Under the pieces are notes generated by a model that worked only from the letters and a program-made list of their open reading frames with translations, made no database searches and was not told the DNA's origin. Both the position numbers and the translations under genes were made by a program. Source: Nautiliaceae bacterium (GTDB taxonomy: Bacteria > Campylobacterota > Campylobacteria > Campylobacterales > Nautiliaceae). From it: a stretch of 40,404 nt of DNA. The stretch covers positions 1-40,404 of the forward strand of contig JAMORJ010000041.1 in the NCBI GenBank assembly GCA_027063595.1. Reading direction: 5' to 3'. The first letter of the stretch is position 1. Each line of letters opens with the position of its first letter. Below are positions 6,698 to 30,244 of this stretch, piece by piece.

Positions 6698-8893
6698 TTA
6701 TTTCATATCGTTAAGATAATTAGTTACTTTATCTTTTATATAATTGCTAATTCCTTGTTGAACCTGAGCTGATATGTTTTGAGATATATCATTGTAAAAT
6801 TCGCTTAAATCTATTCTTGAAAAATCAATCTTTTGGAATTCTTCTGGTGTAAAACCTCTGCAATCTGGGCTTTTAGGACTTCCCCAACCCATTTTTAATT
6901 GTTTTCTTCCTTGTTCTTGAATAATTCTTGCAAGTTTTGAATTAAAACAACAATAAGTTTGTTTATGCTGAATACAAATTTTTGCTACTAATAAATCCAA
7001 TTTTTTAGAACAATACTCTCCTATATAATGGCATTCTTTTTTTTCGTTTTTTTTAGCTAAAAATCGTTCATCCTCTTTACATTTTATAAGCCCGAAGAAT
7101 ACTTTATCTTTATCGCAACAACCTCCTCCCGTAAGTCCGAAAAATATATCATCGCTTCTACATCTCATATCGCGTCCATTGAAAATATAAATCTTTCCAT
7201 CACATTGTCCATTACTATCCCATCCATTATTTTTTTTATCGTTAATTCCAACCGGAGTATCAATATTTTCAACATTATAATCTCCAACTCCCTCTCCTAC
7301 ACAAGGATAAGGACTACATTGCCATTTATTATTTACATAAACGCATTTTCTATCAGGCGCTGGGACGCATTGATAAGTTTTAGCGCGACAGTTGTTAGGC
7401 GGAGGAGTTGGAGAATTACAAGTATTCGCTAATTCAGGGTTTTCTTTGTTAGGATTAGGATCTGTTTTATAGCAACCTCCTTTATCAATCGGTTCATAAG
7501 GGTTTCCATATTTATTTGCACCACTACACAAATATTCATAATAAGTATAATTTATTGTTTTAACGCATTTATTACCTTCTTTTGAGTAATTATTAGGACA
7601 CGTTGGATTAGTGTAACAATAAACTCCATCATAACTCGAATAACCTTTCGGACAAGTTACTCTATAACAATCCCAACTTGTATAATAATCAACCGAATAT
7701 CCATCGGGACATTGCATTACTTCTTTTGCTCCATCAACCGTTATTACATAATAATTAATTCGATTATGTCCCGTATGGTCATTTCTTGTATTGTAATAAA
7801 TTGTATTGTTAATACACTTTAATTTTACCCAGTTATGATGCCTCGTTTTATGGGAGAAGTATGTTTTATAATATGGAGGGATATATTCGTTTCCCGTCCA
7901 TAAAGTAGTATTATAGTTATTCCAAGATTTTGGAGCACTTGCTTCTATCTTATATATTTTACAATCTGCTACTTTTACATGCCCTATCCCATCCCTGCTT
8001 ATCTGAATTCTTGCCTGATACGTTGTTATAGTTTTAACATAATTTGCATGAGATACTATTGCTTTTTTTCTACACTTACCATTAACGAGTTCTCCTCCAT
8101 CAGGGCATATTAAATCCGTATAATCCCTGACAACTCCAGTATGCTCTACCACATAACTATCCGTATAATCCCATTCTTCGCTGCAAGGTGCTAAATCGGC
8201 AGGGCAATAATATTCCCCGTTAGGGTCTTGCAGACAGTCGAACGTCTGTCCGGGTGTAACCGCCCCCGTTGTATCATCATATATTTGTGTGTTACACTTT
8301 GGAGTTTTTCCCCAACTATCGTCTACGTTGCTTGGAGGTATATAACAATCTGGCATTTTATCGCATTCAATAAGCGCATAAAATTTAACGGGATTATTGT
8401 ATTCGTCATAATGGTTTCCAAAATCCGCCCATTTTCCATCAATGCTACTCATAGCAACCCAATGTTCCCCAAGAGCTACCATAGCTTTTCCGTTTTGAAT
8501 ATCATAAGGTTTTACTAAATTATCTGGCTGTTGCTTAGCCCAATTCGTATAAGTTAGGGGTTGGTTTTTAATTGTCATAAACCTGCTATCGTCAAATGCA
8601 CAATTTTCGTTGTCATAACAATAATTGCTTGTATTATTTGGATCATATATCCCTATCCAAGCGTATTTCGGAGTAGGAATAAGTAATTTTAGAAAATCGT
8701 TTTCCGCTTGATCGTTTGGAATTGCAAGATAACATCCGTTATTTTTGGCAAACGTTTTTGCTTCAAGAAAAGTAAGTTTATCTTTCGTAACGGTATAATA
8801 ATGCCCGTTATGTTCTTTAAAATCCGCAACGGAAGAGCAATTAAATGCAAATACGCTTACAATACTTAAAGGTAAAAATTTCAATAACCTCAT
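6698..8893 (-). CDS. traN: TraN-like mating-pair protein with N-terminal C-type-lectin domain
   Basis: C-terminus CCFNSKLARIIQEQGRKQLKMGWGSPKSPDCRGFTPEEFQKIDFSRIDLSEFY is the TraN signature; N-terminus HNGHYYTVTKDKLTFLEAKTFAKNNGCYLAIP..WIGIYDP..TYTNWAKQQPDN..GKWADF..ALIEC is a C-type-lectin fold pattern. Start at ATG 8893. Confidence 0.9.
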   Translation of the reverse strand: MRLLKFLPLSIVSVFAFNCSSVADFKEHNGHYYTVTKDKLTFLEAKTFAKNNGCYLAIPNDQAENDFLKLLIPTPKYAWIGIYDPNNTSNYCYDNENCAFDDSRFMTIKNQPLTYTNWAKQQPDNLVKPYDIQNGKAMVALGEHWVAMSSIDGKWADFGNHYDEYNNPVKFYALIECDKMPDCYIPPSNVDDSWGKTPKCNTQIYDDTTGAVTPGQTFDCLQDPNGEYYCPADLAPCSEEWDYTDSYVVEHTGVVRDYTDLICPDGGELVNGKCRKKAIVSHANYVKTITTYQARIQISRDGIGHVKVADCKIYKIEASAPKSWNNYNTTLWTGNEYIPPYYKTYFSHKTRHHNWVKLKCINNTIYYNTRNDHTGHNRINYYVITVDGAKEVMQCPDGYSVDYYTSWDCYRVTCPKGYSSYDGVYCYTNPTCPNNYSKEGNKCVKTINYTYYEYLCSGANKYGNPYEPIDKGGCYKTDPNPNKENPELANTCNSPTPPPNNCRAKTYQCVPAPDRKCVYVNNKWQCSPYPCVGEGVGDYNVENIDTPVGINDKKNNGWDSNGQCDGKIYIFNGRDMRCRSDDIFFGLTGGGCCDKDKVFFGLIKCKEDERFLAKKNEKKECHYIGEYCSKKLDLLVAKICIQHKQTYCCFNSKLARIIQEQGRKQLKMGWGSPKSPDCRGFTPEEFQKIDFSRIDLSEFYNDISQNISAQVQQGISNYIKDKVTNYLNDMK

Positions 8894-8894
8894 C

Positions 8895-10058
8895 TTATTC
8901 CTTAGAACAAGTAAAATCTTTAACCGCTTCCGTAATACCACTCAAAGCTCCTACTACCTCTTTAAAGTCGTCTATTTTTCCACAATCGTGTTTTATCGTC
9001 TGTCCCGGCTTTATTGGACAATACCAATTTCCGTTACCGTCTTTTTTACACTCTATTATCTCACTTTTTTTAGTAGTAGCCGATGAGGTAGACATAGCTT
9101 TATTCGTATAATCTTGATAAGCCTGAGTATCTACATCCGTCCATTCCACTTCGCAAAACCTACTTTGATTAATATCACCTACGAAAATCGTTCCACTCAC
9201 GTTCTTATTTTCGTCTTTGTAAGAATACGTTCCCGAAGAATACTGAGATGAAGTTGCAATGTTGTTATATTTTGTAGTTAAACCGTTTTTAAATGTTTCA
9301 TCAATCGAATTATTTGCTTCTTCGTTTTGGGTCGTTTCATACAAAAGAGTATATGTTGGATTATCTAATTTAGCCTCGTCGGTTTTTTCGGTTAAAGTAA
9401 CTTCGTCCATTCCCATTGGCACGCTCTCTCCCCCGCAATTTACGCTTTTTCCTTGAACATAAGCATAGTTTTCACTTAAATTAATCCCCGACACTATAAA
9501 ATACCCTTTATTTAAAAGGGAAGAAAAAATTCCACTTATGGTAGATAAAATTTTTGCGTAATCGTTCGAAATTCCTCCACAAGAATTATTTACGCAATAG
9601 CATCCAGCTAAATCGGACGAGTTGGCTTTATCTAAAGAAAAAGAAGTTCCGTTAAACTTTAATAAAAAATATTTACAATTATTCCAAGTTCCACTATTAC
9701 ATTTAATAAATCCATTGGAACAAACTCCGCTAATATTACTAAAATATTGAACGTTTTCAAATTTTCCGTCTAAATTAAAATCTTCATCAACCTCTATCGT
9801 AATATCTCCACCGCTATTTATCACATAGGTAATTTTTAATATATTATATTCTTTTCCGCAGTCAATAGAAACAACTGCTTTTTTTGAATTATCAAGGGTA
9901 GCTAATTCTTGAGATTTAGTAATGGGATTGTTTATTCTTATATCGAGATTGTTCTTATAAGCTCCCAAAATTTGATTTGCTTGATTTGTTCCTTCATCCC
10001 AATATTGAGCCTGTTTTGCAAACAACAAAAAAGGAAGTAAAAATAAACTATAACGCAT
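8895..10058 (-). CDS. Secreted Cys-containing conjugation protein, possibly the N-terminal half of a split TraN
   Basis: Signal peptide; CSNGFIKCNSGTWNNCKYF and GCYCVNNSCGG motifs; sits between traH and traN. Confidence 0.65.
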   Translation of the reverse strand: MRYSLFLLPFLLFAKQAQYWDEGTNQANQILGAYKNNLDIRINNPITKSQELATLDNSKKAVVSIDCGKEYNILKITYVINSGGDITIEVDEDFNLDGKFENVQYFSNISGVCSNGFIKCNSGTWNNCKYFLLKFNGTSFSLDKANSSDLAGCYCVNNSCGGISNDYAKILSTISGIFSSLLNKGYFIVSGINLSENYAYVQGKSVNCGGESVPMGMDEVTLTEKTDEAKLDNPTYTLLYETTQNEEANNSIDETFKNGLTTKYNNIATSSQYSSGTYSYKDENKNVSGTIFVGDINQSRFCEVEWTDVDTQAYQDYTNKAMSTSSATTKKSEIIECKKDGNGNWYCPIKPGQTIKHDCGKIDDFKEVVGALSGITEAVKDFTCSKE

Positions 10059-11565
10059 TTGCGCTCCATATAGGAGAATTTTTATACATTTCTTTTTCCA
10101 AATCCGCGAATTTATTAATTAAATTTCTTTGAACGTTAACTTTTTGCTCGGCTTCATAGATTCTTTTATCTATCACTTTTTTAATTTCTCTTATATTATG
10201 ATAAGCCATCTTCTTCCATCTATTTAGATTTTCTCTAGAATAAGTCGTCGATAAATCTTTATCTGCTGAAAGATAATTAATTGTTTTATTTATTTGTCTA
10301 AAGTATTCGTCTATAAAACTTTCTAAAATTCTATAAGAGAGATATCTCCTAACTTCTTCTAAAGAATTGCTATCAAGTCCTAAAGTGGCAACCAAGTTAA
10401 GCATTTTATACACTGGAAGAGGCATAGCGTTTATAAAATCTATCTCACTATTTGTAAAGCTCTGTTTCGTTTTAAGTTTATTTAAAATATTATCTATATT
10501 CGTTTTTACAAAATTATAAATACTGTCCTCTTTTGATACTTTCAAATTTGCAACGGCATAAAGATTTGGTTCCGTGCTTACAGTTAAAAAATCAACGTTT
10601 TGTTTGTAATTTGAAATAGGCTTATATATATCCCCATCTACGTTAGGATTTAATACCAAAACTTTCAAATCTCCTCCGTAAACTAAAACTTTTATAAAAT
10701 TAGAACCATCAACTTCGAGAGGAGTTATAATGTCAACCTTAGACGGATTCTCATGAACAACTCCAGAAGAATCGGAATTGCTAACGTCATATCCGTAAAT
10801 GTCTCCTGTTATTGCTCTCATTATTGCTTTGAACTCTGCAACGTTCATTACAGCCGGAGTAAAACGCTCCGTTAGTTTATCTACTAAAGAACCGTATCCA
10901 AGTTTGTTTTTCATTCCCTCTGCCCCAGCAATCCCTCCAAACATATTCGCCGCTTGTTGAATTGCCGTCGTTATAGCCCAAGTAGTATCCGTTTTCACTT
11001 TAACTCGGGTTGAAGAAGCGTCTTCAGTTGCTCCAGAAGACGATAAAAAATTAGCAATTATACTCGCTCCTTTACCAGCAAGAGCTTTTGTGGCTTGACA
11101 AGCGTTTAAATTAAAATTATTTAAAGCATCGGCTATTTTTTCTAAATTAGTCATGATAGTATTACATTGTTCGCATAAAGTCATAATCGCCATTTGAAAC
11201 GCCATGGCTGGAGCGGCGGCAGCAATCTTTTTAAGTTTTTCTACAAGCTGATCAAAACCCAAATAGCTAAAAGAACCAAAAGTCATATCTACCCCATTAC
11301 ACCCAACCGCAAAGTGTGGAGCTTCAGCATGAAAAAGATTGATATTAGCTCCACTCATATCCCACCTAAGTCTTAACCCTCCTCCATACCAAAATCCTCC
11401 CGCTTGAGTTTTATAATAGCCGGGACTAGTAATTTCTAAAGAGCCGTTAAGCTGATTTCTAATAAAATCGCCCATCGAAGCGTTTGCAAAAGTAAATAAA
11501 ATTCCTAACAAAGCACTCAAAACGACAAATGAACGTGTTTCTTTTACCATTCTACTAAAGACCAT
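10048..11565 (-). CDS. traH: TraH, F-type conjugative pilus assembly protein
   Basis: GGFWYGGGLRLRW..INLFHAEAPHFAVGCNGVDMTFGSFSYLGFDQLVEKLKKI; CEQCNTIMTNLEKIADALNN. Confidence 0.95.
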   Translation of the reverse strand: MVFSRMVKETRSFVVLSALLGILFTFANASMGDFIRNQLNGSLEITSPGYYKTQAGGFWYGGGLRLRWDMSGANINLFHAEAPHFAVGCNGVDMTFGSFSYLGFDQLVEKLKKIAAAAPAMAFQMAIMTLCEQCNTIMTNLEKIADALNNFNLNACQATKALAGKGASIIANFLSSSGATEDASSTRVKVKTDTTWAITTAIQQAANMFGGIAGAEGMKNKLGYGSLVDKLTERFTPAVMNVAEFKAIMRAITGDIYGYDVSNSDSSGVVHENPSKVDIITPLEVDGSNFIKVLVYGGDLKVLVLNPNVDGDIYKPISNYKQNVDFLTVSTEPNLYAVANLKVSKEDSIYNFVKTNIDNILNKLKTKQSFTNSEIDFINAMPLPVYKMLNLVATLGLDSNSLEEVRRYLSYRILESFIDEYFRQINKTINYLSADKDLSTTYSRENLNRWKKMAYHNIREIKKVIDKRIYEAEQKVNVQRNLINKFADLEKEMYKNSPIWSANAL

Positions 11566-12101: not shown

Positions 12102-12420
12102 ACCTCAAAACTTCATTTGTAACGTCTTTATCGTAATTGTCGCTAAGAATGGCTCTTTTTACTAAGATTACCGCATTATCTCTTTTTGCGATGTATGAAA
12201 TTATTTTCTTAAACTTTTTATCAAGCGCTTTTACTTTGTCAGCGTTTATTTTACCCTCTTTTAATCCAAGACTTAATAATCTTTTTTCTGCGTTTATTAA
12301 TTTTGAAGTATCGACTACGTAAATTTTCTCTTTCTTTTTTGGTAAAATGAATTTTTGATAAGCCGCAATAACCCCAAGAGATATTGCAAGAGAAATTAGA
12401 ATCATTTCTATATATTTCAT
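12076..12420 (-). CDS. trbI: TrbI-like F-type conjugation protein
   Basis: Single N-terminal TM, VVDTSKLINAE...NAVILVKRAILSDNYDKDVTNEVL; syntenic position. Confidence 0.75.
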   Translation of the reverse strand: MKYIEMILISLAISLGVIAAYQKFILPKKKEKIYVVDTSKLINAEKRLLSLGLKEGKINADKVKALDKKFKKIISYIAKRDNAVILVKRAILSDNYDKDVTNEVLRFGLANESN

Positions 12421-14807: not shown

Positions 14808-15653
14808 TTAATTAAAAAAACCTCCTCTCATCTTCTTAATAAGTTTTTCAAGGGTTTTTGATTTGGCTTTTTGATTTATTTTCTCAAACACGTAGACGAG
14901 ATTTGCGTCTCCATAGGCAATGTAAGCTTTTTCTCCCATATCTCTTTTGGGCAAAGGTTTATACATATCTAAAAACCCGTTATAATTTTTTACATAAATT
15001 ACAGCCGGAACTTCTTTAATATTAAAATGTTCCGTAACTTTAGGATTTATTTCCACGTTTACCCAATATCTATTCTTTTTACTTGGTTTTTTGTTCGGAT
15101 CTTTTGTTAAAATTCTATTTAGCCACTTAAGAGTAGGTTTTATACGTTTTGGATTGTTTCCTACAAACCCCCTTAAAACAAATATTATATCGGTCCTAAC
15201 GGGCTGAACCTCTTGAAAATAATTTTGAATGGTAGAAATAGGTATTGAAGAGCTTATAACTACGTATATGGTTTCATCGTTTGCAAGAAAATTATGTTTT
15301 TTTAGCTTAAAAAAGTAATTCTTAGGAAGGTATTTTGAAAAACCTATTTTTTTATCGTAAAGAATGTATTTTTTCATATTTACCACGTTTTCTTGGAACT
15401 TGGAACTTTTAAGATAATTGCTTATTTCTTCGGCTTGAATTTTTGCTTCTTTATTAGAAGGTTTCTTAAAGTTGATTTTTTTAAGAGTTTTATTAATGTC
15501 AAATTGAATTTTGTCTATATTTACGTTTTGTTGTAAAAGTTTTGATTGGTTTATTTCATTCTTATACGTTTTTACACTTAAAAGATATTTTTTTTCAAAC
15601 TCTTTATTTACTGCAAAAAGCACTACTGGAATTAAAAAAAAAGCTTTTTTCAT
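14808..15653 (-). CDS. trbC: TrbC, F-type conjugation periplasmic protein
   Basis: Signal peptide; YVVISSSIPISTIQNYFQEV...FVLRGFVG...VNVEINPKVTEHFNIKEVPAVIYV. Confidence 0.9.
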   Translation of the reverse strand: MKKAFFLIPVVLFAVNKEFEKKYLLSVKTYKNEINQSKLLQQNVNIDKIQFDINKTLKKINFKKPSNKEAKIQAEEISNYLKSSKFQENVVNMKKYILYDKKIGFSKYLPKNYFFKLKKHNFLANDETIYVVISSSIPISTIQNYFQEVQPVRTDIIFVLRGFVGNNPKRIKPTLKWLNRILTKDPNKKPSKKNRYWVNVEINPKVTEHFNIKEVPAVIYVKNYNGFLDMYKPLPKRDMGEKAYIAYGDANLVYVFEKINQKAKSKTLEKLIKKMRGGFFN

Positions 15654-16453
15654 TGCTTATCCTTAGGAACTATTATATTATCATAAACGAATATAGTATT
15701 ATTTACAATTTCGTTGAGTGTAGCAAGTCCCGTCTTAACCCTCGCCCAAATACCTTCTCCTTTTGAATTTTTGTAAACAAAAAACATATCTGGTAAAGTT
15801 TTAATGTTAAACTTCTTAACTAGATCGGGTCTCTTAGTTATATCAATCCATACAAAATCGTAGTCTCCGTAATTTTTCTTAAACAAATTTATTATCCATT
15901 TTTGCCTTACATTAGTCATTTTATCGGAAGGATTGTAAAAAATCACGAAACCTAAATCCTTTATATGCTTTTTGAAAAATTCTCTAATTTTTCTACTCTT
16001 TTGTATTTGTTTAGTAGTTCTTGCAAATGTGCTGGCTTTAATTTCGGGATATCCAAGTTCATTTGGATTTTGAAGAGTCTCTACATACCAGACTTTTGCA
16101 AATTTAGTAGCTTGATCGGTCATAAATTTTTGCATTTTTTTTACCACATACACGTTGTATCTAGTTGGTTTCATTACCGCTATGCCTTTTGCTCTTTTAA
16201 AAACCTTGTTAAAATCCTCAGCCGAATACAAATCAAGATTATCTAAAGGAATTGAATTCATAAATCTATCATCTGAAAGTTTCATAAGCTCTTTTAAATC
16301 ATAAGGATTTATTTTCACGACTTTAGTTTGATTAGTTTCATTAGTTTCGTTATTATCATCAAAAAACCAACCAGTATTACCCGTATTATAAAAATCATTA
16401 TTTATTCTCGCAAAAAGCAAAAGAGGCAGGAGAAAAAAAATAAACTTCATCAA
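15650..16453 (-). CDS. traF: TraF, F-type conjugation thioredoxin-like protein
   Basis: Signal peptide; GLVIFYNPSD-like GFVIFYNPSDKMTNVRQKWIINLFKKNYGDYDFVWIDITKRPDLVKKFNIKTLPDMFFV. Confidence 0.88.
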   Translation of the reverse strand: MMKFIFFLLPLLLFARINNDFYNTGNTGWFFDDNNETNETNQTKVVKINPYDLKELMKLSDDRFMNSIPLDNLDLYSAEDFNKVFKRAKGIAVMKPTRYNVYVVKKMQKFMTDQATKFAKVWYVETLQNPNELGYPEIKASTFARTTKQIQKSRKIREFFKKHIKDLGFVIFYNPSDKMTNVRQKWIINLFKKNYGDYDFVWIDITKRPDLVKKFNIKTLPDMFFVYKNSKGEGIWARVKTGLATLNEIVNNTIFVYDNIIVPKDKQ

Positions 16454-16459
16454 TGCTCC

Positions 16460-19400
16460 TTAAGGCATTAAATCACTAGGCTTAGTAGGCTTTGAAAAGT
16501 TTGTCTCTTTTTTTTCAATTTTCACGTCGTCGTAATTATTATTTCTCACGGAAGTTTTATTTTCACTCGTTACAGGAAAACCAGTTAGAGGATTAGTAAA
16601 GTTTCCAATTATAGAATTCGAGGATATAGTGTTAAATTTCATAGTCGTTATTAATTCCTGAGGAGTTTTGATGTCTTGAAAATTCACAGGAGAACCCATT
16701 ATTCCATTTTTTAAAGCGTTTTCCAAAATAGTCTTTGCCTCAGGATGTGTCTCTACATATTCCTTCATTTCACTATAAGGAACTTGAGTATTCAAAACAT
16801 ATACCTTTCCACCTGACTTAACTAACACTCCAACCGTATCATTTCCAAATATGTGCTCTTGCGGGATAAAGCCTCCAAATTTTCCAGAGAAAAGACTGTC
16901 GTCGGCTATAGGAGTAGGATTTAAAGGAACTCCTTCTATTAAACCAACTGCCATTGCACCCACTCCCGCTTTTATTGCTTTTATTGAGTTTGAAGAGAAA
17001 GACGTTCTTACCGTATTCGCGGTTTCTACCGCAGTTAAAGCTTCCTTGGCATTTTCCACGATTTTGTCTCCTTCTATTATAGAAGTAGGTTTAACGTTTT
17101 TAACTTTTTTCCACCAATCGTATATCCCTTTTCCACCAGCATATAAATAAGGAGCGGTTATAAATAATCCAGCCGTTACTATTTCTGTGCTATTATCTTC
17201 CCAAAAATTCGATTCTAAAGATTGATTTAGTTTTCTATTTATTTCTTGTTCAGCTTTTTTTACTTCTTTTTCTAATGAACTATTATGTTTAGGTTTTGAA
17301 ATATCTAAATGAGATTTTTCTTTTAGTTTATTAAAAGAGACGTTATTAAGATCTACGGCTTTATCTATATAATCGCCTCTTGCCTTTACGTCGTCTTTCA
17401 CATTAGAAATCGTGCTATTTGTAAAATAAGCCACCGACTTGTCGACGTTTCCTATATTAGCATCTGTTTCCTCAAGTTTATTTTTAAAACTTTCTTCATT
17501 AACAATTCTATCTATCAATCCTCTCTTTTCCAGTTCTTGTCCTAACGTTCCATTTCTTATCATAGTCGAAATGTCAGCTATTGCATACGTAAATGCTTCT
17601 TTATCGCTTATGCGAGGATTTTTATTTTTAAATTCTTCTATTAAATCTATCGCTAACTCATTAAGTAAATTTTGGGAAATAGAAATGCCTTTGCTTTTAA
17701 TCAATGATTGAACTTTCTCAAGGGATTCTAAATCGCTTTTAGATTTAGAATATTGTTTGCTTACTGAACTAATATCATTATACATTTCTTGATTTGTATG
17801 CGAAGTTTCTTTTAAAAAAGCTTCTCTTGCGCTTTGATTTTCCATAAGCTCTTTTGCAAAAACTTTTCCAAATTGTTCTCTAAACGCTTCGGCATCTTTT
17901 CCAGTTAAAGTTAAAGAATATTTATTACTCTTTTGATCTATACCTTCTATTCGAATTCCTCCATTTGCTAACCCTTTAACGTTAAAAGCAAGTCCCTCTT
18001 TCGCAGAAGCCTGTTTCATTGCGTTAAGAACTTTTGAATAATTAGTGTCTTTACCTATAATTTTTTCAATAGAATTTAAAACAGCGTAAGTCTCACTTTG
18101 TCTATCGCTTAAACTTAAGCTTTTATCACTACCAATACTAAATCCGCCTTTACTATTTATTGATTGAGAAATGTTTGAACTTATTGTATCTACAAAATTT
18201 TCAGCCGATTGTTCTAAATGCTGTTTTGCAGCTTTAATTTGCTGCTGCAAATTTTCCTTAATGGAATTTTGCGCTAAAGCGCTTGCCGCCGTAGAAGTTA
18301 CATTTATACCTACAATTCCAGAAGGAGCAATGCTTGCAACAGCATTCAATACTCCATTATCGGAGGTTAGTCCCACTTGTTCCATATTACCCATTTTAAC
18401 TACTTTTTCATCCATAGAATGTCCGCCATAGCTAAATAAATGTTCTTTTTGGATACCACCGGGCTTATCCGTATATATAACATCTCCCACTCTTGTTCTT
18501 GGTATAGGATTTTGAGCATTACTAACATCGGCGCTTGCACCAACACCTGCACCTGAAGTCGCCATACCAGATAATGAAGAAGCAATAGATACAAATCCGT
18601 ATTCGCTCCCCTTTGCTATTGCATAGGCAAGAGGAGGAGTTACCCAAGCAAGATATCCCAGCCAAGCAAGAGTAGAAGAAATTTTATTGTTTATAAAGGC
18701 TGAGGTAAATAAAGTAATAGTCTGTCCCGTATCGTTTACAACCTGATTAAACACTTTAGCGGCATAAATATCTCCTATGTAATTTATTATTACCAAGATT
18801 GGAGTCCAAAGCACAAGCCATAAAAGCAGAAAGAAATATTTAGTAAGATATCTAAAATCTATAAATATTATTGCAACTAATGCAATAATCCAACTAAGCC
18901 CTACTATTAATGCCGTTAAAATCCCTTTTGCTATAGGCAAGTATTCTTTTGCAAGAAATCCCATTGTAATAAATTTATCTTTTGTGCTTTGCTGAGCTAC
19001 CGCCGCCGCATATGCCAATTGACTCTCGCTAAGTCCAGTGGTCGCTGCAATAGATTTAAAAGAACCTTTAACCATATTGATTATAAAATTTTGCTGTAAG
19101 TAATCTCTTGCGCTTTTGCTTGCGTTAAAAAACAATTGAACCACATCCGGAATTTTATTTTCCAATAAAGTCGTAGAAGTTCTTAAAAGAGCAGCTGCCA
19201 ATCGCTCTATATAAGGTAATTGCGTATTTTGAACATTGTCTACTATATCTTGATAAGCGTCTTTGCATTCAACAACCTTTCCATCTGGATTTGAAGCCGA
19301 ATAAACTTTAGTCAACCTATTATCATCTCCCGGATCCAAAGCGGCTAATAAATCATCAGAGGTCAGTAAATCGTTTACATTTTTAGTGCCATCTTGTATC

Positions 19401-19981
19401 TCGTAGAGAGTGCAATTCTCAAGAAAATCCTTAAGAGTTAAGGTAAAATATATATCCGAAGTTTTTAATTCGGGCATCGTGCTTTGAAGTTGCAACGGAA
19501 ATCCTAATCCGCTATTTCTATAAGTAATAGAGTTTGGTAAAGAAAATTCTTTTTCCATTGCACCAGCAATTCTATCTTCCAATAAAGACATAATTTGCAA
19601 TGGCTCTCCTATCCCTGTTGGAATTTGCTCTACTACATATTGAGCACCGGTAACTTTATCCGTAATAACATATCTATGTTTCGCATCGTTAGGAGCGTTT
19701 AAAAACAAATACCACACAGCTGTTGCAAGAGTCATCATCTTACCAAATTCCCAAACAATATTCACTCTTCCATCGGTTGCTTTTTTAAAAGCAAAAACCA
19801 AGAACGCAATTCCTACAGTTGTTTTGAATATAATAGACAAACCATTTCCATCTACAAGCGCTCTTATGGCATCCAATATATTCTTTAAAAGTTCTCCGTA
19901 TCCCCAAGTATATATTTCTCCATTATAATCAGCTCCAAGAAGAAATTGCAAGAAGAAAAAAAGAAGAAAAACTATTCGCAT
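16460..19981 (-). CDS. traG: TraG, F-type mating-pair stabilisation protein
   Basis: N-terminal TM region with TraG_N pattern (NILDAIRALVDGNGL..IVGLSWIIALVAIIFIDFRYLTKYFFLLLWLVLWTPILVIINYIGDIYA); long periplasmic C-terminus. Confidence 0.92.
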   Translation of the reverse strand: MRIVFLLFFFLQFLLGADYNGEIYTWGYGELLKNILDAIRALVDGNGLSIIFKTTVGIAFLVFAFKKATDGRVNIVWEFGKMMTLATAVWYLFLNAPNDAKHRYVITDKVTGAQYVVEQIPTGIGEPLQIMSLLEDRIAGAMEKEFSLPNSITYRNSGLGFPLQLQSTMPELKTSDIYFTLTLKDFLENCTLYEIQDGTKNVNDLLTSDDLLAALDPGDDNRLTKVYSASNPDGKVVECKDAYQDIVDNVQNTQLPYIERLAAALLRTSTTLLENKIPDVVQLFFNASKSARDYLQQNFIINMVKGSFKSIAATTGLSESQLAYAAAVAQQSTKDKFITMGFLAKEYLPIAKGILTALIVGLSWIIALVAIIFIDFRYLTKYFFLLLWLVLWTPILVIINYIGDIYAAKVFNQVVNDTGQTITLFTSAFINNKISSTLAWLGYLAWVTPPLAYAIAKGSEYGFVSIASSLSGMATSGAGVGASADVSNAQNPIPRTRVGDVIYTDKPGGIQKEHLFSYGGHSMDEKVVKMGNMEQVGLTSDNGVLNAVASIAPSGIVGINVTSTAASALAQNSIKENLQQQIKAAKQHLEQSAENFVDTISSNISQSINSKGGFSIGSDKSLSLSDRQSETYAVLNSIEKIIGKDTNYSKVLNAMKQASAKEGLAFNVKGLANGGIRIEGIDQKSNKYSLTLTGKDAEAFREQFGKVFAKELMENQSAREAFLKETSHTNQEMYNDISSVSKQYSKSKSDLESLEKVQSLIKSKGISISQNLLNELAIDLIEEFKNKNPRISDKEAFTYAIADISTMIRNGTLGQELEKRGLIDRIVNEESFKNKLEETDANIGNVDKSVAYFTNSTISNVKDDVKARGDYIDKAVDLNNVSFNKLKEKSHLDISKPKHNSSLEKEVKKAEQEINRKLNQSLESNFWEDNSTEIVTAGLFITAPYLYAGGKGIYDWWKKVKNVKPTSIIEGDKIVENAKEALTAVETANTVRTSFSSNSIKAIKAGVGAMAVGLIEGVPLNPTPIADDSLFSGKFGGFIPQEHIFGNDTVGVLVKSGGKVYVLNTQVPYSEMKEYVETHPEAKTILENALKNGIMGSPVNFQDIKTPQELITTMKFNTISSNSIIGNFTNPLTGFPVTSENKTSVRNNNYDDVKIEKKETNFSKPTKPSDLMP

Positions 19982-21313: not shown

Positions 21314-21592
21314 ATGAAAAAAATTAAATGGATTTTTTGGTTTATTGTATTATATCCTGCGTTAGTTTTTGCGGGAACTCAAGACAATCTTGGAGTTCAA
21401 GGTGTTTGGGATAAGATTCAAAGCTGGTTAACAGACGATTACGTTCGAAGAATAGTCGCGGCTATATTTTTTGTTATCGGAATAATGAGAGCAACCGCTT
21501 CAATTTTGCAATTTTTTATTATGCTTGGATTTTCAGTTTTATTTCTTAATGCAAACACAATTATCGAAAAACTTACGGGAGCTACGTTCTAA
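21314..21592 (+). CDS. Candidate major pilin (TraA/VirB2-type)
   Basis: Signal peptide ending ALVFA|G, two hydrophobic helices, 92 aa, immediately upstream of traL. Confidence 0.72.
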   Translation: MKKIKWIFWFIVLYPALVFAGTQDNLGVQGVWDKIQSWLTDDYVRRIVAAIFFVIGIMRATASILQFFIMLGFSVLFLNANTIIEKLTGATF

Positions 21593-21628
21593 TCTCTCCC
21601 CATTCTTTTTAGATACAGGAGTAAAAAA

Positions 21629-21925
21629 ATGGAAGAATATGGAGTAAGAAATTACAATTATTTAGATAGTAAACCTTATTTTGCATCTTGGGAAATAGAC
21701 ATTTTTATGGTTTTTGCTACATTTTTTGGACTCGCTCTAATGATTACTAATTCTTTTTTATCTTTTTCCGTTATAACTGGAACGGGAATTTTATCAGCTT
21801 ATATCTACGCAAAAATAAAAAAATCTAAAATAAAAGGTTTTTTTTGGCATTTGCTTTACGCTTTTGGAATTAAACAACCAATTACACTCCCTCCAAGTTA
21901 TATGAGGATATTTGTCGGAGCTTAA
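21629..21925 (+). CDS. traL: TraL
   Basis: Two TM segments and C-terminal LPPSYMRIFVGA. Confidence 0.88.
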   Translation: MEEYGVRNYNYLDSKPYFASWEIDIFMVFATFFGLALMITNSFLSFSVITGTGILSAYIYAKIKKSKIKGFFWHLLYAFGIKQPITLPPSYMRIFVGA

Positions 21926-22036
21926 TTAGCCCATTATTATCCCATTTTTTACTTTCTTTCCTTTTATTTTTTTTTCGACATTTAGTATAATTTAGCGAAC
22001 TTACCTAATTATTTTTTTGTAAAAAAAAGGAGAAAA

Positions 22037-22597
22037 ATGCTATGGAATAAATATAAATTCAAGCTCGATAAATATATCTATGAAAATTGGACTTTCAGGA
22101 TTACTACCACAATTTTAGTGGGAATTATTGCTTATCAAACTTGGCTTATAGGAGAAAAAGCTAACAATCAAAAAGTCGTTGTTTTACCTCCAAAAGTAAC
22201 AAAATCTTTTTGGGTATCTGGTAATCAAGTCTCAAAATCTTATTTAGAACAGATGGCACAAATGATAGCCTTTTACCTTTTTAATATTTCTCCAAATACT
22301 GCAAAACTTTCAGTAGATAACATTTTGCTTTACGTAGAACCTCAATTTTATTCAAAAGTAAAAACATTACTTTATAAACAAGTAAAATACATTCAAGAAA
22401 ACGACATATCAAGAGTGTTCTATCCCTCAATTATTAAAGTAGATAAACCGGGACTAATCCAAGTAATTGGTGTCAAAAGAGACATTATAGGCAACAAAAT
22501 AGTATCTCAAGACCAAATAGAACTTGATATTGGATATAGAATAAAGCAAGGAAGATTTTGGATAAATTCAATCATAGTAAAAAAATACAAAGGGTAA
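22037..22597 (+). CDS. traE: TraE
   Basis: N-terminal TM; VSGNQVSKSYLEQMAQMIAFYLFNISP; traL-E-K-B synteny. Confidence 0.9.
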   Translation: MLWNKYKFKLDKYIYENWTFRITTTILVGIIAYQTWLIGEKANNQKVVVLPPKVTKSFWVSGNQVSKSYLEQMAQMIAFYLFNISPNTAKLSVDNILLYVEPQFYSKVKTLLYKQVKYIQENDISRVFYPSIIKVDKPGLIQVIGVKRDIIGNKIVSQDQIELDIGYRIKQGRFWINSIIVKKYKG

Positions 22598-22601
22598 AAA
22601 A

Positions 22602-23375
22602 ATGAAAAAAATTTTAGCATTTTTAGTAAGTTTTTTAACACTTAATGCAACCGTAATTATTAATAATCCTAACGGATTAATTAAAGTATATCTTTCAAAA
22701 AGCTCCGTTAATAGAATTGTATTACCGGAAAAAATTCTAGACCTTGCCTATTCAAAAGAAAAAGGTTTAATTGTAAAAGTAGTAGGAAATCAAGCATTTT
22801 TAAAATATAAAGTAATTAAAGAACAAAAATTCGAACAAGTAGGTGGCAAAGTAAACCCAAACTCTTTAAAACCAATAGGAAATCCGCAAATAAAATATTT
22901 AGCAAAACCAAGCGAAGTATATTTTATAACTAAAAATAAAACATACTCATTTCTTTTTATTCCAAAAAATATAAAACCTCAAACTATTATAATTAATGAT
23001 TTTGGAGCAAAAGTAAAAGAAATAATCAAATACGAAACAGAAGATAGTTATATTAAAACTCTTGCAAAAATTACAAAAACGATATTAAATAACCAAGTTC
23101 CATTTGGATATAAAATTAAAACCTACAATAAAATTGTTTATAAAGATAAAATCTTTACTACTGTCTTAAAAAACGAATATGATGGAGTAATTTATAAAGC
23201 CTATTTATTTGAAATCCACAATAAAAGCGCAAAACCTTACAAATTAAACCCAAGAATACTTTACAATCTTGCCGACAAACCCCCAGTTTCCTTAACTATT
23301 TTTTACGATAATCAAGTAAATTACCTCTTACCATTTTCAAAAGCATACATAGTAATAATTGAAAAAAGGAATTAG
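22602..23375 (+). CDS. traK: TraK, secretin-like
   Basis: Signal peptide; KSSVNRIVLPEKI; FIPKNIKPQTI; synteny. Confidence 0.87.
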   Translation: MKKILAFLVSFLTLNATVIINNPNGLIKVYLSKSSVNRIVLPEKILDLAYSKEKGLIVKVVGNQAFLKYKVIKEQKFEQVGGKVNPNSLKPIGNPQIKYLAKPSEVYFITKNKTYSFLFIPKNIKPQTIIINDFGAKVKEIIKYETEDSYIKTLAKITKTILNNQVPFGYKIKTYNKIVYKDKIFTTVLKNEYDGVIYKAYLFEIHNKSAKPYKLNPRILYNLADKPPVSLTIFYDNQVNYLLPFSKAYIVIIEKRN

Positions 23376-23377
23376 TA

Positions 23378-24622
23378 ATGCTTGAGAAAATTCTAAACTT
23401 CTTTTCTACCGATAAAAATCCAGACGATGCCGAAAAGTTACAAAAAAAGAACGTAATAGTAATTGGAGTTTCTCTTTTTGCAATAATTCTTTTTTTGATG
23501 TTCGTAATAGGAGGAGATGAAAATACAAACAAAAAAAATAAAATAGGAGAATTTAAAATTGTAACAGATAACGAAGCAGCAAAAACAGCTTGGATTGGTA
23601 AAGTAGCTCCTGAAGTTGAGGTTACTAATAAACAAGTTAGAGAAGTTTTAGAACAAAACAAACAATTAAAAAAAGAAATCAATATGTTAAAAAAAATGAT
23701 TATTCAAATGAAGAAAAATAAACCTCAACAACCTGTGCAAAACGAGAAAAAAATAAATCTCAATTTGACGCCAAACAACGCTAATCAAAACCTCTATACT
23801 AAATTCCCGCTTCCCCCAAAACCAAAATCCCCTAAAGAAGTAGGATTAAACGAACTAGGCAGAGTTCCTATTCTAAAAAAAAGAATAATCGTTAAAAAAG
23901 AAGAACTAAAAGATCCCCTTGCCTATGCCCAAATTTCTCAACCAGAAAAACCAAAACCACAACCAGAGAAACCAAAACCTGAGAATATAATTTTAACTGG
24001 GACCATTACAAAAGTAATCTTACTTGGAGGAATGGATGCTCCAACTATGGCAAGAGCAAAAAATAATCCTCTTCCGGTTTTAATGAAAGTTATGGATCTT
24101 TCATTTTTGCCAAACGATTGGAGGGAGGATATAAAGGGATGTTTCATCTTAGGAGAAGGTTATGGAGACCTAAGTAGCGAAAGAGCCTACATAAAAACGA
24201 CTACTCTTTCGTGCGTAACTAAAGACGGATATCATATTGATACTCCCTTTAGAGGAGCAGTATATGGAGAAGATGGAAAAGTGGGACTTAGAGGAAGAGT
24301 TGTAACCAAACAAGGCGCATTAATAGCGAGAACCCTGCTTGCTGGTTTTTTACAGGGAGTAAGCGAAGCCTTTAAACAAAATACTACAATAGTAAGCGTC
24401 TCTCCTCAAGGTTCAACTCAAACTATAAACCCAAATAAAGCCCTACAAGCTGGCACTTTTAACGGATTTGCATCCGCTACGCAAAAATTAGCTGATTTTT
24501 ATTTAAAAATGGCGGACCAAATTGCACCAGTAATTGAAATAAGTGCCGGAAGAAGAGTTGATGTAATTTCACTTGAGCCTGTAAAACTTAAACCTATAGA
24601 ATTTTTAAAGAAAAAAAAATAA
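23378..24622 (+). CDS. traB: TraB, VirB10-like
   Basis: Single TM, Pro-rich linker, VLMKVMDLSFLPNDWREDIKGCFILGEGYGDLSSERAYIKTTTLSCV..RGRVVTKQGALIARTLLAGFLQGVSEAF. Confidence 0.93.
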   Translation: MLEKILNFFSTDKNPDDAEKLQKKNVIVIGVSLFAIILFLMFVIGGDENTNKKNKIGEFKIVTDNEAAKTAWIGKVAPEVEVTNKQVREVLEQNKQLKKEINMLKKMIIQMKKNKPQQPVQNEKKINLNLTPNNANQNLYTKFPLPPKPKSPKEVGLNELGRVPILKKRIIVKKEELKDPLAYAQISQPEKPKPQPEKPKPENIILTGTITKVILLGGMDAPTMARAKNNPLPVLMKVMDLSFLPNDWREDIKGCFILGEGYGDLSSERAYIKTTTLSCVTKDGYHIDTPFRGAVYGEDGKVGLRGRVVTKQGALIARTLLAGFLQGVSEAFKQNTTIVSVSPQGSTQTINPNKALQAGTFNGFASATQKLADFYLKMADQIAPVIEISAGRRVDVISLEPVKLKPIEFLKKKK

Positions 24623-24632
24623 AGGAGAATTA

Positions 24633-25391
24633 ATGAGAAAATTAATTCTTAGCATAAGTATAGCGGCAAGTTTATTTGGAGCTTCGTTAATATCACAAAA
24701 AGAATTTGGTTTGGTTCAATCGGTCTTACCCAATACAAAAATATCAAAAGTAGAACACACTCTTATTGACGGACTATATGCCGCATTTTTGCCAAACGGA
24801 AATGTAATATACGTTTATCCCTATAAAAGATTAATTTTTTTTGGAGAAATTTATACAAACACGGGAATTAACCTAACAAATAAAATAAAGACCGCTTGGA
24901 AAAACAAAATACAAAAAGAACGGCTAAAAAAAATTAATGCAGAAGAACTTTTAAAAAATAGTTTTGAAATTAAATTCGGTAAAGGAAGCAACAAATACGA
25001 AATTGTAGTATTTACCGACCCAGAATGTCCATTTTGCAGGAGAGTGGATAAATTTGTAAAAGATAAAAACATTACATTTCACATAAACTACATGCCTTTA
25101 TATTTTCATCCACACGCTAAAAAATGGGCTTTAGAAATACTTTCAAGCAAAAACAAAAAAAAAGCAATTGAAACAATCGAAAAAACAAATAAAGATCTAA
25201 ATATAACAATTACAAAAGAAGCAAAAAAAACTCTAAAAGCTACACAAGCCCTTGCAAGAAAACTTGGAATAAGAGGAACTCCGACAATGTTCGTAATAGA
25301 TACAAAAACGAATAAAGTAATTGACGTTATAAACGGAGCAAATATTCCAAAACTTCAAAAATGGATTGAAAAAGACAAGGAGCAAAAATGA
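24633..25391 (+). CDS. DsbC-like thiol-disulfide isomerase
   Basis: VFTDPECPFCRRVDKF (CxxC), GIRGTPTMFV, signal peptide. Confidence 0.9.
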   Translation: MRKLILSISIAASLFGASLISQKEFGLVQSVLPNTKISKVEHTLIDGLYAAFLPNGNVIYVYPYKRLIFFGEIYTNTGINLTNKIKTAWKNKIQKERLKKINAEELLKNSFEIKFGKGSNKYEIVVFTDPECPFCRRVDKFVKDKNITFHINYMPLYFHPHAKKWALEILSSKNKKKAIETIEKTNKDLNITITKEAKKTLKATQALARKLGIRGTPTMFVIDTKTNKVIDVINGANIPKLQKWIEKDKEQK

Positions 25392-25900
25392 AAAAGCTAA
25401 TTATTTCTATTGGAACCACATTTTTTCTAATCGGATGCTCGATGATGCCATATCACGATAAATTTATGTGTGAAGGAGGTAGTAATGTCAAAATTTGTAA
25501 AAGAGTAAGCGAGGTTTTAAAAGAAAGCGATGAAATAAACAAACCAAAACTTCATTCGACAACCATATACTACTATAACAGAAATTACTATTACGACAAA
25601 AAACTTAAAGACATGATTGAAGCAATATCTCTTGAAGAGTTGCAAAAACCCGTTAAAGTTAAAATAGTATGCAACAAATCTCCTGTCAAAAATAAAAAAT
25701 CCAACGTTATTTTTAAAAGAAAAGTAAAAGTATGCGTATACAAAGCAAATATAAGAAAAAAGCCTTCTTGCAAAGCCGACGTTGTAAAAGTAGTAAAGAA
25801 AGGTAGCATTTTATACGCAAATGCTCTCGTTAACGATGCTTGGATCAAGGTAAAAGACGGATACATTCATAAATCTTTAGTCTGTAAAGAATGCAAATGA
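25388..25900 (+). CDS. Lipoprotein with TraV-like N-terminal Cys motif fused to an SH3b domain
   Basis: Lipobox LIGC; FMCEGGSNVKICKRVSEVLKES resembles the TraV N-region; C-terminal VCVYKANIRKKPSCKADVVKVVKKGSILYANALVNDAWIKVKDGYIHKSLV is SH3b-like. Confidence 0.68.
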   Translation: MKKLIISIGTTFFLIGCSMMPYHDKFMCEGGSNVKICKRVSEVLKESDEINKPKLHSTTIYYYNRNYYYDKKLKDMIEAISLEELQKPVKVKIVCNKSPVKNKKSNVIFKRKVKVCVYKANIRKKPSCKADVVKVVKKGSILYANALVNDAWIKVKDGYIHKSLVCKECK

Positions 25901-26322
25901 AGAAACTAATTGCACTGACAATCATTAACATAGCTTTTGCGTATAACGTTAGTTTAAATAGAAAAGTAGATTTATTAACTCAAGCTGTAGCAAAACTTAT
26001 AAACGAAAATCAAAAATTACAAAATCAAATAAACGAATTAAAGCAAACAATGAAAATCAACACTCAAATGATAACCTCAAATAGACATTTAATAGAAAAA
26101 CTAAAAAAAAACAATTTAAGCGCTTTTGCTATAGTTAAGGCTTATAGATTAAACGTAAGAGAAAAACCATCTTTGAAATCAAAAATATTAAAACAACTAA
26201 AAAGAAACGAAATCGTAAAAATACACGACACAATCATTAAAAACGGCAAAGTGTGGTATAAAGTCGATAACGGATACATCTCGGCATTTTATACGAATCT
26301 TGCAATAAGGAGAAAAAAATGA
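25897..26322 (+). CDS. Secreted coiled-coil protein with SH3b domain
   Basis: AYRLNVREKPSLKSKILKQLKRNEIVKIHDTIIKNGKVWYKVDNGYISAFY; ATGA overlap with the preceding gene. Confidence 0.75.
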   Translation: MKKLIALTIINIAFAYNVSLNRKVDLLTQAVAKLINENQKLQNQINELKQTMKINTQMITSNRHLIEKLKKNNLSAFAIVKAYRLNVREKPSLKSKILKQLKRNEIVKIHDTIIKNGKVWYKVDNGYISAFYTNLAIRRKK

Positions 26323-26795
26323 AAAATTTTAAATTAATTACAATAGGATTAATTGGGCTTACTCTAATAGGTTGTGCCTCCAGCCAACCTCAGCCTCAAC
26401 TAAAACCGTCAAAACAAGCAAAAGAGTTAAAAACCATAGAAGCGTTTGTAAAAAACAAAAAAACCGCTCCACTTAGAAAAGTTAGCAAATTCGTTAACAA
26501 ACCCTTAAACATTACGGAGGTAAATAAAATTTTATTAAAGACCAATTCTTTATATGCAAAAAAATATAAAAAAGAAGCTCTAAAAGAAAAAATAAATCTT
26601 ACTCCAAACACTCCGTTATATCGCCCCCCTTTATTTGCGGAAATGATAGTATTTCCATACGTTAGCGATGGAATTTATCACGATACGCAAAAAATATGGA
26701 TAAAAATTAAAAACGGGGAATTCGTATTAAATCAAAACAAAAAAGATAAAAAATTAATTTTTGGGATAAATTATGGAGGAAAATATAATGAATAA
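26319..26795 (+). CDS. Lipoprotein resembling the C-terminal part of TraV
   Basis: Lipobox LIGCAS; PLYRPPLFAEMIVFPYVSDGIYHDTQKIWIKIKNGEFVL resembles the TraV C-region (RxP..W..PY.D.dG..H......v..G.W). Confidence 0.65.
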   Translation: MKNFKLITIGLIGLTLIGCASSQPQPQLKPSKQAKELKTIEAFVKNKKTAPLRKVSKFVNKPLNITEVNKILLKTNSLYAKKYKKEALKEKINLTPNTPLYRPPLFAEMIVFPYVSDGIYHDTQKIWIKIKNGEFVLNQNKKDKKLIFGINYGGKYNE

Positions 26796-29256: not shown

Positions 29257-29266
29257 GGAGGGGGAA

Positions 29267-30244
29267 ATGAAAAAAAAACTATTAACTTTATTATTTAGTC
29301 TCAATCTTTTGTTTGGGGTTTGCAAACCAAATCCCACCCAGCTTTTAACCGACATTTTTTCTCTTGATTATTCGGCAATGCTTCCTTTAAAAATAGCTGG
29401 AGCAACTATTCTTCCCGGACCTATACCAGATAGCATAGATACTCCTCATACGCCAATTTGCATATGTCCCGCTCCACCTCCAATTATGCTTAGAATAGGA
29501 ATTCCTGTAGGCTTTTACAATCCAGACAGAATGGTAGATAGTGTAAAAGACCCTTATTGTTTCGAAGGACTTGGAATAAGTATAACTCCCATCAATATCA
29601 AAGGAGCCGGAGTTCAAGCCGATGATCCTCAAAGCGGAGTGCATTCGTTTTTTCAAACTCACTTAGTATCTTTTCCGGTATTTCAGGTGTTAGATTTAAT
29701 GATAGATTTTATATGTCTTCAATCACCAACAGGAGTAGACATTTTATACTTAACCGAAATAGACCCTATGTGGAACAGCGATAGTTTATCGGCTTTAATC
29801 CAACCAGAGGCACTTTTGTTTGGAAACCCTATTACAAACCTTGCATGTATGGCTGATAGTATCGCCTCTCAAATTTATATGCCAATAGATGCTCTTTTTT
29901 GGTGCAAAGGAAGTTGGGGAAACGCTTATCCAATGACGGGTAGCGTAACAAGCGGAGATTTAATCCAATCAAGTGCATCGGCGGCGGCAAGTTTACTTTA
30001 TAAACTTCACAGACAATTAATTCTCTGGGGACAATGGGGTTATGAAGGATTATGTTTTAGATATCCTCTTCCTATTTGGCAAAAATCAGCTTACAGATTA
30101 CAACTTATAGCACCTATACCTTTTATAAAAGCTATAACGATAGGACAAACGGGTATGCTTTGGGATAGCGCAAAAAATCCTCCATTTGCTGGAGATAATT
30201 TCAGTTATATTATATTTAGAAAAAGGGATTGCTGTGCGTTTTAG
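29267..30244 (+). CDS. traU: TraU
   Basis: FPI-type N-terminus; TPICICPAPPPIMLRIGIPVGFYNPDRMVDSVKDPYCFEGLG..CLQSPTGVDILYLTEIDPMWNSD..GNPITNLACMADSIAS. Confidence 0.95.
   Translation: MKKKLLTLLFSLNLLFGVCKPNPTQLLTDIFSLDYSAMLPLKIAGATILPGPIPDSIDTPHTPICICPAPPPIMLRIGIPVGFYNPDRMVDSVKDPYCFEGLGISITPINIKGAGVQADDPQSGVHSFFQTHLVSFPVFQVLDLMIDFICLQSPTGVDILYLTEIDPMWNSDSLSALIQPEALLFGNPITNLACMADSIASQIYMPIDALFWCKGSWGNAYPMTGSVTSGDLIQSSASAAASLLYKLHRQLILWGQWGYEGLCFRYPLPIWQKSAYRLQLIAPIPFIKAITIGQTGMLWDSAKNPPFAGDNFSYIIFRKRDCCAF

What the first reader, a model, noticed from the sequence alone, without database searches (positions are those of the whole stretch)
6698..8893. TraN adhesin with an N-terminal C-type-lectin domain carrying a QPD motif
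The C-terminus is unmistakably TraN, but residues after the signal peptide read as a C-type-lectin fold: HNGHYYTVTKDKLTFLEAKTFAKNNGCYLA, WIGIYDP, NWAKQQPDN, GKWADF, ALIEC. In animal C-type lectins QPD goes with galactose-type and EPN with mannose-type Ca2+-dependent binding. TraN in F-like plasmids selects recipients through outer-membrane contacts, so a lectin head suggests glycan- or surface-ligand-directed mating. Sugar specificity is inference only.
Basis: partly seen in the sequence, partly recalled or inferred. Interest (0 to 1): 0.85.

Follow-up and report, generated by a model that had tools for sequence, protein, structure and literature searches.

The report
Conjugation adhesin with C-type lectin head
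A plasmid protein that helps two bacteria lock together for DNA transfer carries, at one end, a domain of the animal-lectin type, and the same fusion recurs across plasmids of the Campylobacter phylum, hinting that these plasmids may read the partner's surface with a lectin-like head as well as an ordinary swappable tip.

Summary
Confirmed: window 6698-8893, MINUS strand, encodes a 731-aa TraN with a true C-type lectin-like domain (CTLD) at the mature N-terminus (residues ~19-183). Evidence: Pfam Lectin_C above cut-off, nine of nine relatives tested also match, profile match to animal lectins, and an AlphaFold model (pLDDT 81) whose best PDB neighbours are C-type lectins including GalNAc-bound MGL. 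The same fusion is in about 16 further Campylobacterota genomes or plasmids and one Geobacterales plasmid, as one CTLD clade; I found no paper on it. The CTLD co-varies with the base, not the cassette, and two TraNs keep the CTLD but lack the cassette. So the lectin is a constant extra head, not the variable species sensor. The galactose claim is not supported: QPD, E143 and D157 sit at the Ca2+ site, but the Asn of WND is replaced in 18/18 members (present in 52/53 phage CTLDs) and the Trp after QPD is absent. Most likely a second recognition head for recipient surface glycan; ligand and Ca2+ use unproven.

The parts
6698..8893 (-). traN, 731 aa, whole CDS (alternative GTG start at 8941 overlaps the upstream gene)
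8846..8893 (-). signal peptide, about residues 1-16 (FA|FNC; relatives show A-x-A-like sites just before an invariant Cys)
   Evidence: sequence; inference for the cleavage site
8345..8839 (-). C-type lectin-like domain, residues 19-183
   Evidence: Lectin_C, hhalign to animal CTLDs prob 99%, AlphaFold pLDDT 80.7, Foldseek PDB
8522..8530 (-). Q122-P123-D124, long-loop motif aligned with QPD of MGL/ASGPR1; kept in 17 of 18 members
8465..8467 (-). E143 (GEHW), aligned with the Ca2+-binding Glu of GEDC in MGL; 18 of 18
8423..8431 (-). W155-A156-D157, aligned with WND; the Asn is replaced (A/S/W/R/Y) in all 18 members, W and D invariant
8345..8347 (-). C183, invariant; probable disulfide with invariant C19 (8837-8839) stapling the domain ends
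   Evidence: 18/18 conservation; pairing is inference
8114..8344 (-). moderately conserved scaffold, residues 184-260
7574..8113 (-). hypervariable exchangeable cassette, residues 261-440, equivalent in position to the TraN 'tip'; no homologue of this allele in 72,556 plasmids
   Evidence: N. labii allele maps on the IncC TraN tip
6701..7573 (-). conserved Cys-rich TraN base, residues 441-731 (Pfam F_T4SS_TraN at 6848-7195)
8895..10058 (-). 387-aa conserved partner gene directly upstream; relatives annotated TraN in Yersinia and Vibrio
10048..11565 (-). traH
14808..19981 (-). trbC, traF, traG of the same F-type T4SS
21314..30244 (+). second tra block: pilin-like TrbC/VirB2, traL, traE, traK, traB, dsbC, SH3 gene, traC, traU

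Best explanation
This is the mating-pair-stabilisation protein TraN of an F-type plasmid T4SS, with a CTLD as a constant N-terminal head. Shown: domain fold, motif positions, three-layer architecture, wide conservation, exchange of the cassette but not of the CTLD. Inferred: the base anchors TraN in the donor outer membrane as in IncF; the swappable cassette docks to a recipient outer-membrane protein (species specificity); and the CTLD is a second head that binds a more widely shared feature of the recipient surface, most likely a glycan (LOS, capsule or PglB-type N-glycan), through a modified long-loop site. It would give first or reinforcing contact, with Ca2+ at a QPD/E/D site that lacks the usual Asn ligand.
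For: CTLD. Q, P, D, E143, W155 and D157 conserved in 17-18 of 18 members across two phyla, so the site is under constraint. Conservation: CTLD 0.45-0.65, cassette 0.00-0.19, base 0.4-0.74. CTLD identity tracks base identity (Mantel rho 0.78, p 0.0005); the cassette does not (0.18, p 0.07). G373 v A. cibarius: CTLD 44, middle 66, C-term 54%; same-genus G373 v G027: 81/58/82. The N. labii cassette matches IncC TraN residues 257-378, overlapping the published tip (205-354 or 230-360; PMC13104618). G344 and G362 have a 395-aa TraN of CTLD plus base only, inside a complete-looking tra operon. Precedents: MGL, a QPD CTLD, binds C. jejuni N-glycan and LOS (PMC7358460); LPS-core mutants are poor F recipients and PilV of R64 binds LPS (PMC10516633).
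Against: No binding or mating data. The WND Asn is absent in 18/18 and the galactose-packing Trp is absent, so the canonical sugar site is altered. A constant head that tracks the base could equally be structural. PglB is missing in 3 of 14 CTLD-TraN genomes that keep QPD, so the N-glycan cannot be the universal ligand.
Confidence: 0.5

Rival explanations
1. The CTLD is an external recognition head but binds a protein (outer-membrane protein, flagellin, S-layer) without Ca2+, as many CTLDs without a canonical site do.
For: WND Asn lost in all members; known TraN receptors are proteins (PMC9246713); many CTLDs use Ca2+-independent protein contacts (PMC7618208).
Against: Q, P, D, E and D of the long-loop site are kept in 17-18 of 18 members, which is unexpected if the site were idle; W-S-D and other WxD lectins are reported as Ca2+-dependent in bivalves (PMC12842671).
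Confidence: 0.22
2. The CTLD is a structural or docking domain of the donor machine (for example contacts to the TraN base or to the 387-aa partner), not a recognition head.
For: Co-varies with the base; the partner gene accompanies CTLD-TraN in almost all loci; the CTLD survives when the cassette is lost.
Against: The partner also occurs in Yersinia, Vibrio and Enterobacter plasmids, and the plasmid search for the CTLD returned none of them, so the partner does not need the CTLD; most TraNs work without a CTLD.
Confidence: 0.2
3. The CTLD serves adhesion to abiotic or host surfaces or biofilm, with mating efficiency only a side effect.
For: Other CTLDs in this phylum sit in giant adhesin-like proteins (2,500-3,000 aa).
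Against: Those have EPN/WND and fall outside the TraN clade; the TraN CTLD is found in tra operons of organisms from very different habitats (reptile, dog, poultry, and free-living relatives).
Confidence: 0.06
4. A diversity-generating retroelement target (CTLD folds are classic targets).
For: Fold class only.
Against: No reverse transcriptase in the whole genome; the CTLD is the conserved, not the variable, part.
Confidence: 0.01

Closest known systems
TraN of F-type plasmids (TraN_S alpha-delta of IncF, TraN_M of IncA/C, TraN_L of IncH)
   Same: C-terminal F_T4SS_TraN domain, Cys-rich conserved base, variable tip (N. labii cassette homologous to the IncC tip), tra operon context
   Different: Has an extra N-terminal CTLD; no CTLD or lectin is mentioned in the TraN papers read (PMC9246713, PMC10516633, PMC13104618)
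TraN_V of Acinetobacter baumannii pABAY10001 (base with two tips)
   Same: More than one distal recognition element on one base
   Different: TraN_V's extra element is a second tip, described without a lectin domain (PMC13104618); here it is a CTLD that does not vary with the tip
Human MGL/CLEC10A and ASGPR1 (QPD C-type lectins)
   Same: Fold (Foldseek rank 2, TM 0.81 on target), QPD, Glu and Asp of Ca2+ site 2 aligned
   Different: No WND Asn, no Trp after QPD, no canonical Cys pairs in most members, longer long loop
Phage-encoded CTLDs (IMG/VR) and CTLDs of giant Campylobacterota adhesins
   Same: CTLD fold, N-terminal lobe motifs such as NGHxYY, ENxF, WIG
   Different: Mostly EPN/WND site; different clade
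PilV (IncI R64) and PrgB (pCF10), glycan-binding conjugation adhesins
   Same: Donor adhesins that read recipient LPS or teichoic acid
   Different: Unrelated systems; analogy of function only

Membership tests
F-type T4SS TraN | C-terminal F_T4SS_TraN domain above Pfam cut-off | tested here: met
   110.6 bits against 23, residues 567-682
F-type T4SS TraN | Lies in an F-type tra operon (TraH, TraF, TraG, TrbC, TraC, TraU) | tested here: met
F-type T4SS TraN | Conserved base plus variable tip | tested here: met
   conservation profile; N. labii cassette maps on the IncC tip; the window's own cassette has no homologue to compare
F-type T4SS TraN | Full-length equivalog score of a named TraN subtype | tested here: not met
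   NCBIfam matches are C-terminal only and below cut-offs: a TraN, but none of the modelled subtypes
F-type T4SS TraN | Needed for mating-pair stabilisation | not testable with these tools
   no experiment
C-type lectin-like domain superfamily | Lectin_C profile above cut-off | tested here: met
   29 bits against 22.6; 9/9 relatives
C-type lectin-like domain superfamily | CTLD fold | tested here: met
   model pLDDT 80.7, pTM 0.81; best PDB neighbours are CTLDs, E to 2e-8
C-type lectin-like domain superfamily | WIGL core motif | tested here: met
   W79-I-G-I; W 16, I 17, G 18 of 18
C-type lectin-like domain superfamily | Canonical two disulfides | tested here: not met
   Canonical Cys mostly absent; C19 and C183 invariant, C54/C177 only in the two Nautiliaceae members
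Galactose-type (QPD) Ca2+-dependent lectin | QPD in the long loop at the Ca2+ site | tested here: met
   hhalign and alignment to MGL
Galactose-type (QPD) Ca2+-dependent lectin | WND (Asn and Asp ligands) on strand 4 | tested here: not met
   WAD; Asn absent in 18/18, present in 52/53 phage CTLDs
Galactose-type (QPD) Ca2+-dependent lectin | Aromatic residue after QPD that packs on galactose (QPDDW in MGL) | tested here: not met
   QPDNL in the window; role of the Trp from prior knowledge
Galactose-type (QPD) Ca2+-dependent lectin | Ca2+-dependent sugar binding | not testable with these tools
   needs ITC or glycan array
Diversity-generating retroelement target | Reverse transcriptase in the genome | tested here: not met
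   no RVT_1 match

The most novel reading that the evidence does not exclude
Conjugative plasmids of the Campylobacterota use a two-key mate check on one protein: a constant lectin head reading a phylum-level surface glycan and an exchangeable tip reading the species' outer-membrane protein, with a modified Asn-less QPD site as a new kind of bacterial C-type lectin.
Probability: 0.3. Interest if true: 0.85.

Novelty: new variant of a known kind. Interest (0 to 1): 0.62.

Why it matters
TraN is the part of F-like plasmids shown to choose recipients, and the receptors known for it are outer-membrane proteins. A C-type lectin head fused to TraN throughout the Campylobacterota would add a sugar-reading layer to conjugation host range and make the old observation that LPS core mutants are poor F recipients newly testable in another phylum. 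It also defines a bacterial CTLD lineage with a constrained but altered Ca2+ site.

Tried and rejected
AlphaFold with only the window and one relative failed (pLDDT 32); repeated with phage CTLDs fetched for the purpose. Searches for relatives of this CTLD in viral contigs found none. DGR hypothesis rejected. PglB N-glycan as universal ligand weakened: 11 of 14 genomes have STT3; G358, G027 and G373 do not. Phase variation as cause of the split C. coli gene rejected: it is a single-base frameshift, not a long homopolymer tract. Window cassette: no Pfam and no plasmid homologue. Alignment A1 contained a mistaken fragment and was not used. One Pfam call had wrong frames and was dropped.

Full report
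What is there. The ORF is on the minus strand, ATG at 8893 to stop at 6698, 731 aa. Pfam finds F_T4SS_TraN at 567-682 (1.2e-31) and Lectin_C at 39-121 (1.9e-6, above the curated cut-off). The contig looks like a plasmid: Rep3 initiator, ParB, a ParA/MipZ-like ATPase, SSB, ArdC, and two divergent blocks of an F-type T4SS.

Is the lectin domain real? Nine divergent members each match Lectin_C on their own. A profile of the family finds 151 PDB sequences at E <= 0.01, and those listed are overwhelmingly C-type lectins. hhalign of 18 TraN CTLDs against five animal CTLDs gives 99% probability, E about 1e-18, with Q122-P-D124 on the QPD of MGL, E143 on its GEDC Glu, and W155/D157 on W and D of WND. 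The AlphaFold model of residues 18-188 with a 23-sequence alignment has pLDDT 80.7 and pTM 0.81; Foldseek against the PDB gives 450 hits at E <= 0.001, the best being mouse SRCL and GalNAc-bound MGL. Caveat: the alignment contained phage CTLDs, and a first run with two sequences failed; the sequence evidence is independent of the model.

How widespread? tblastn over 72,556 plasmids finds the CTLD on TraN in Nitrosophilus labii pHRV44, Campylobacter iguaniorum pCIG1485E, C. upsaliensis, Aliarcobacter cibarius, C. coli, and a 1,632-aa TraN of Trichlorobacter lovleyi. In genomes, 16 of 398 in the phylum match, two of them only weakly and not on an evident TraN. Within the order, Lectin_C occurs in 14 of 400 genomes, 7 of them on TraN. 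Near-complete TraNs close to this one all have the CTLD; three more distant TraNs (G076, G172, G043) gave no CTLD match, and three genomes hold only C-terminal TraN fragments. The TraN CTLDs form one group in a tree (81/78 with T. lovleyi, which is a long branch; 96/97 for the Campylobacterota), apart from phage and other Campylobacterota CTLDs. So the fusion looks single in origin and old.

Architecture. Conservation along the protein is high in the CTLD (0.45-0.65), moderate at 184-260, almost nil at 261-440, and high again in 441-700. Pairwise identity of CTLD and C-terminal base agree (rho 0.78, p 0.0005); the middle agrees with neither (rho 0.18 and 0.08). Examples of swapping: G373 and A. 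cibarius share 66% in the middle but 44% in the CTLD, while G373 and its congener G027 share 81% in the CTLD and 58% in the middle. The N. labii middle matches over 1,000 plasmid records, most of them proteobacterial and many annotated TraN; in the IncC plasmid pR148 it maps to TraN residues 257-378, where published work puts the recipient-sensing tip (205-354 or 230-360 in two IncA/C TraNs; PMC13104618). So the middle is the ordinary TraN tip and the CTLD is something extra. G344 and G362 carry a 395-aa TraN in which the CTLD is joined to the base by about 26 residues with no tip, in an operon with TraH-like, partner, TraC-like and TraG-like genes: nature has dropped the tip and kept the CTLD.

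The binding site. Q122, P123, D124 and N125 are kept in 17 of 18, E143, W155 and D157 in 18 of 18, D131 in 17, so the long-loop site is constrained. But position 156, the Asn of WND, is A, S, W, R or Y in all 18, whereas 52 of 53 phage CTLDs with the motif have WND. The Trp that follows QPD in galactose binders is absent. Between QPD and E143 the family has extra residues relative to animal lectins, low in model confidence. Variant WxD lectins are listed as Ca2+-dependent in bivalves, e.g. EPD/WSD AiCTL-7 inhibited by mannose and galactose (PMC12842671), so Ca2+ binding is not excluded; the galactose label is unsupported.

How it probably works. Established for IncF-like plasmids: TraN sits in the donor outer membrane, its tip contacts a recipient outer-membrane protein, and this stabilises mating (PMC9246713, PMC10516633). 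Here I infer that the tip keeps that role, and that the CTLD adds a second, slower-evolving contact. A glycan is favoured because the site residues are conserved, because MGL with the same fold and QPD binds C. jejuni N-glycosylated proteins and LOS (PMC7358460), and because LPS matters for F uptake and is read by PilV in another system (PMC10516633). The PglB N-glycan alone cannot be the universal ligand since three CTLD-TraN genomes lack STT3. Rivals: a protein-binding CTLD, or a structural donor-side domain.

What is known. No paper found in the library joins TraN with a lectin domain; the TraN papers read do not mention lectins. RefSeq's pipeline does call the split C. [quoted passage not shown] I class it as a new variant of a known kind.

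Noticed in passing
window 8895-10058 (-): 387-aa gene without Pfam/NCBIfam match, directly upstream of traN in most CTLD-TraN loci; its N-half matches proteins annotated TraN in Yersinia and Vibrio, and Enterobacter pEh6_1 has two tandem TraN CDS. It looks like an undescribed TraN partner of this T4SS branch.
   Followed up: partly
L051:7513-8697 and L052:7765-8949: Minimal 395-aa TraN: CTLD joined straight to the TraN base, tip cassette missing, inside a complete-looking tra operon.
   Followed up: yes
L018:5932-8096 (C. coli plasmid): CTLD-TraN split in two CDS by a single-base frameshift; near-identical intact copies exist in other genomes. [quoted passage not shown]
   Followed up: yes
L022, L024, L026: C-terminal TraN fragments (103-202 aa open frames) in genomes of one genus, without a CTLD; look like decayed remnants of transfer regions.
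   Followed up: no
window 12417-14732 (-): A topoisomerase (Topoisom_bac/Toprim, 771 aa) lies between trbI-like and trbC genes in the tra operon.
   Followed up: no
whole window: No relaxase seen among the window ORFs scanned with Pfam, no PF03432 match in the genome, and related plasmids are typed mostly non-mobilizable: the relaxase of this plasmid family may be of an unrecognised type.
   Followed up: partly
window 8732-8734 and 8363-8365 (-): Cys54 and Cys177 occur together only in the two Nautiliaceae members; the other relatives have neither (mostly Gly and Phe), suggesting a lineage-specific disulfide.
   Followed up: partly
L116, L123, L124, L125: CTLDs with intact EPN/WND in 2,500-3,000-aa adhesin-like proteins of other Campylobacterota; a separate clade from the TraN CTLDs.
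   Followed up: partly
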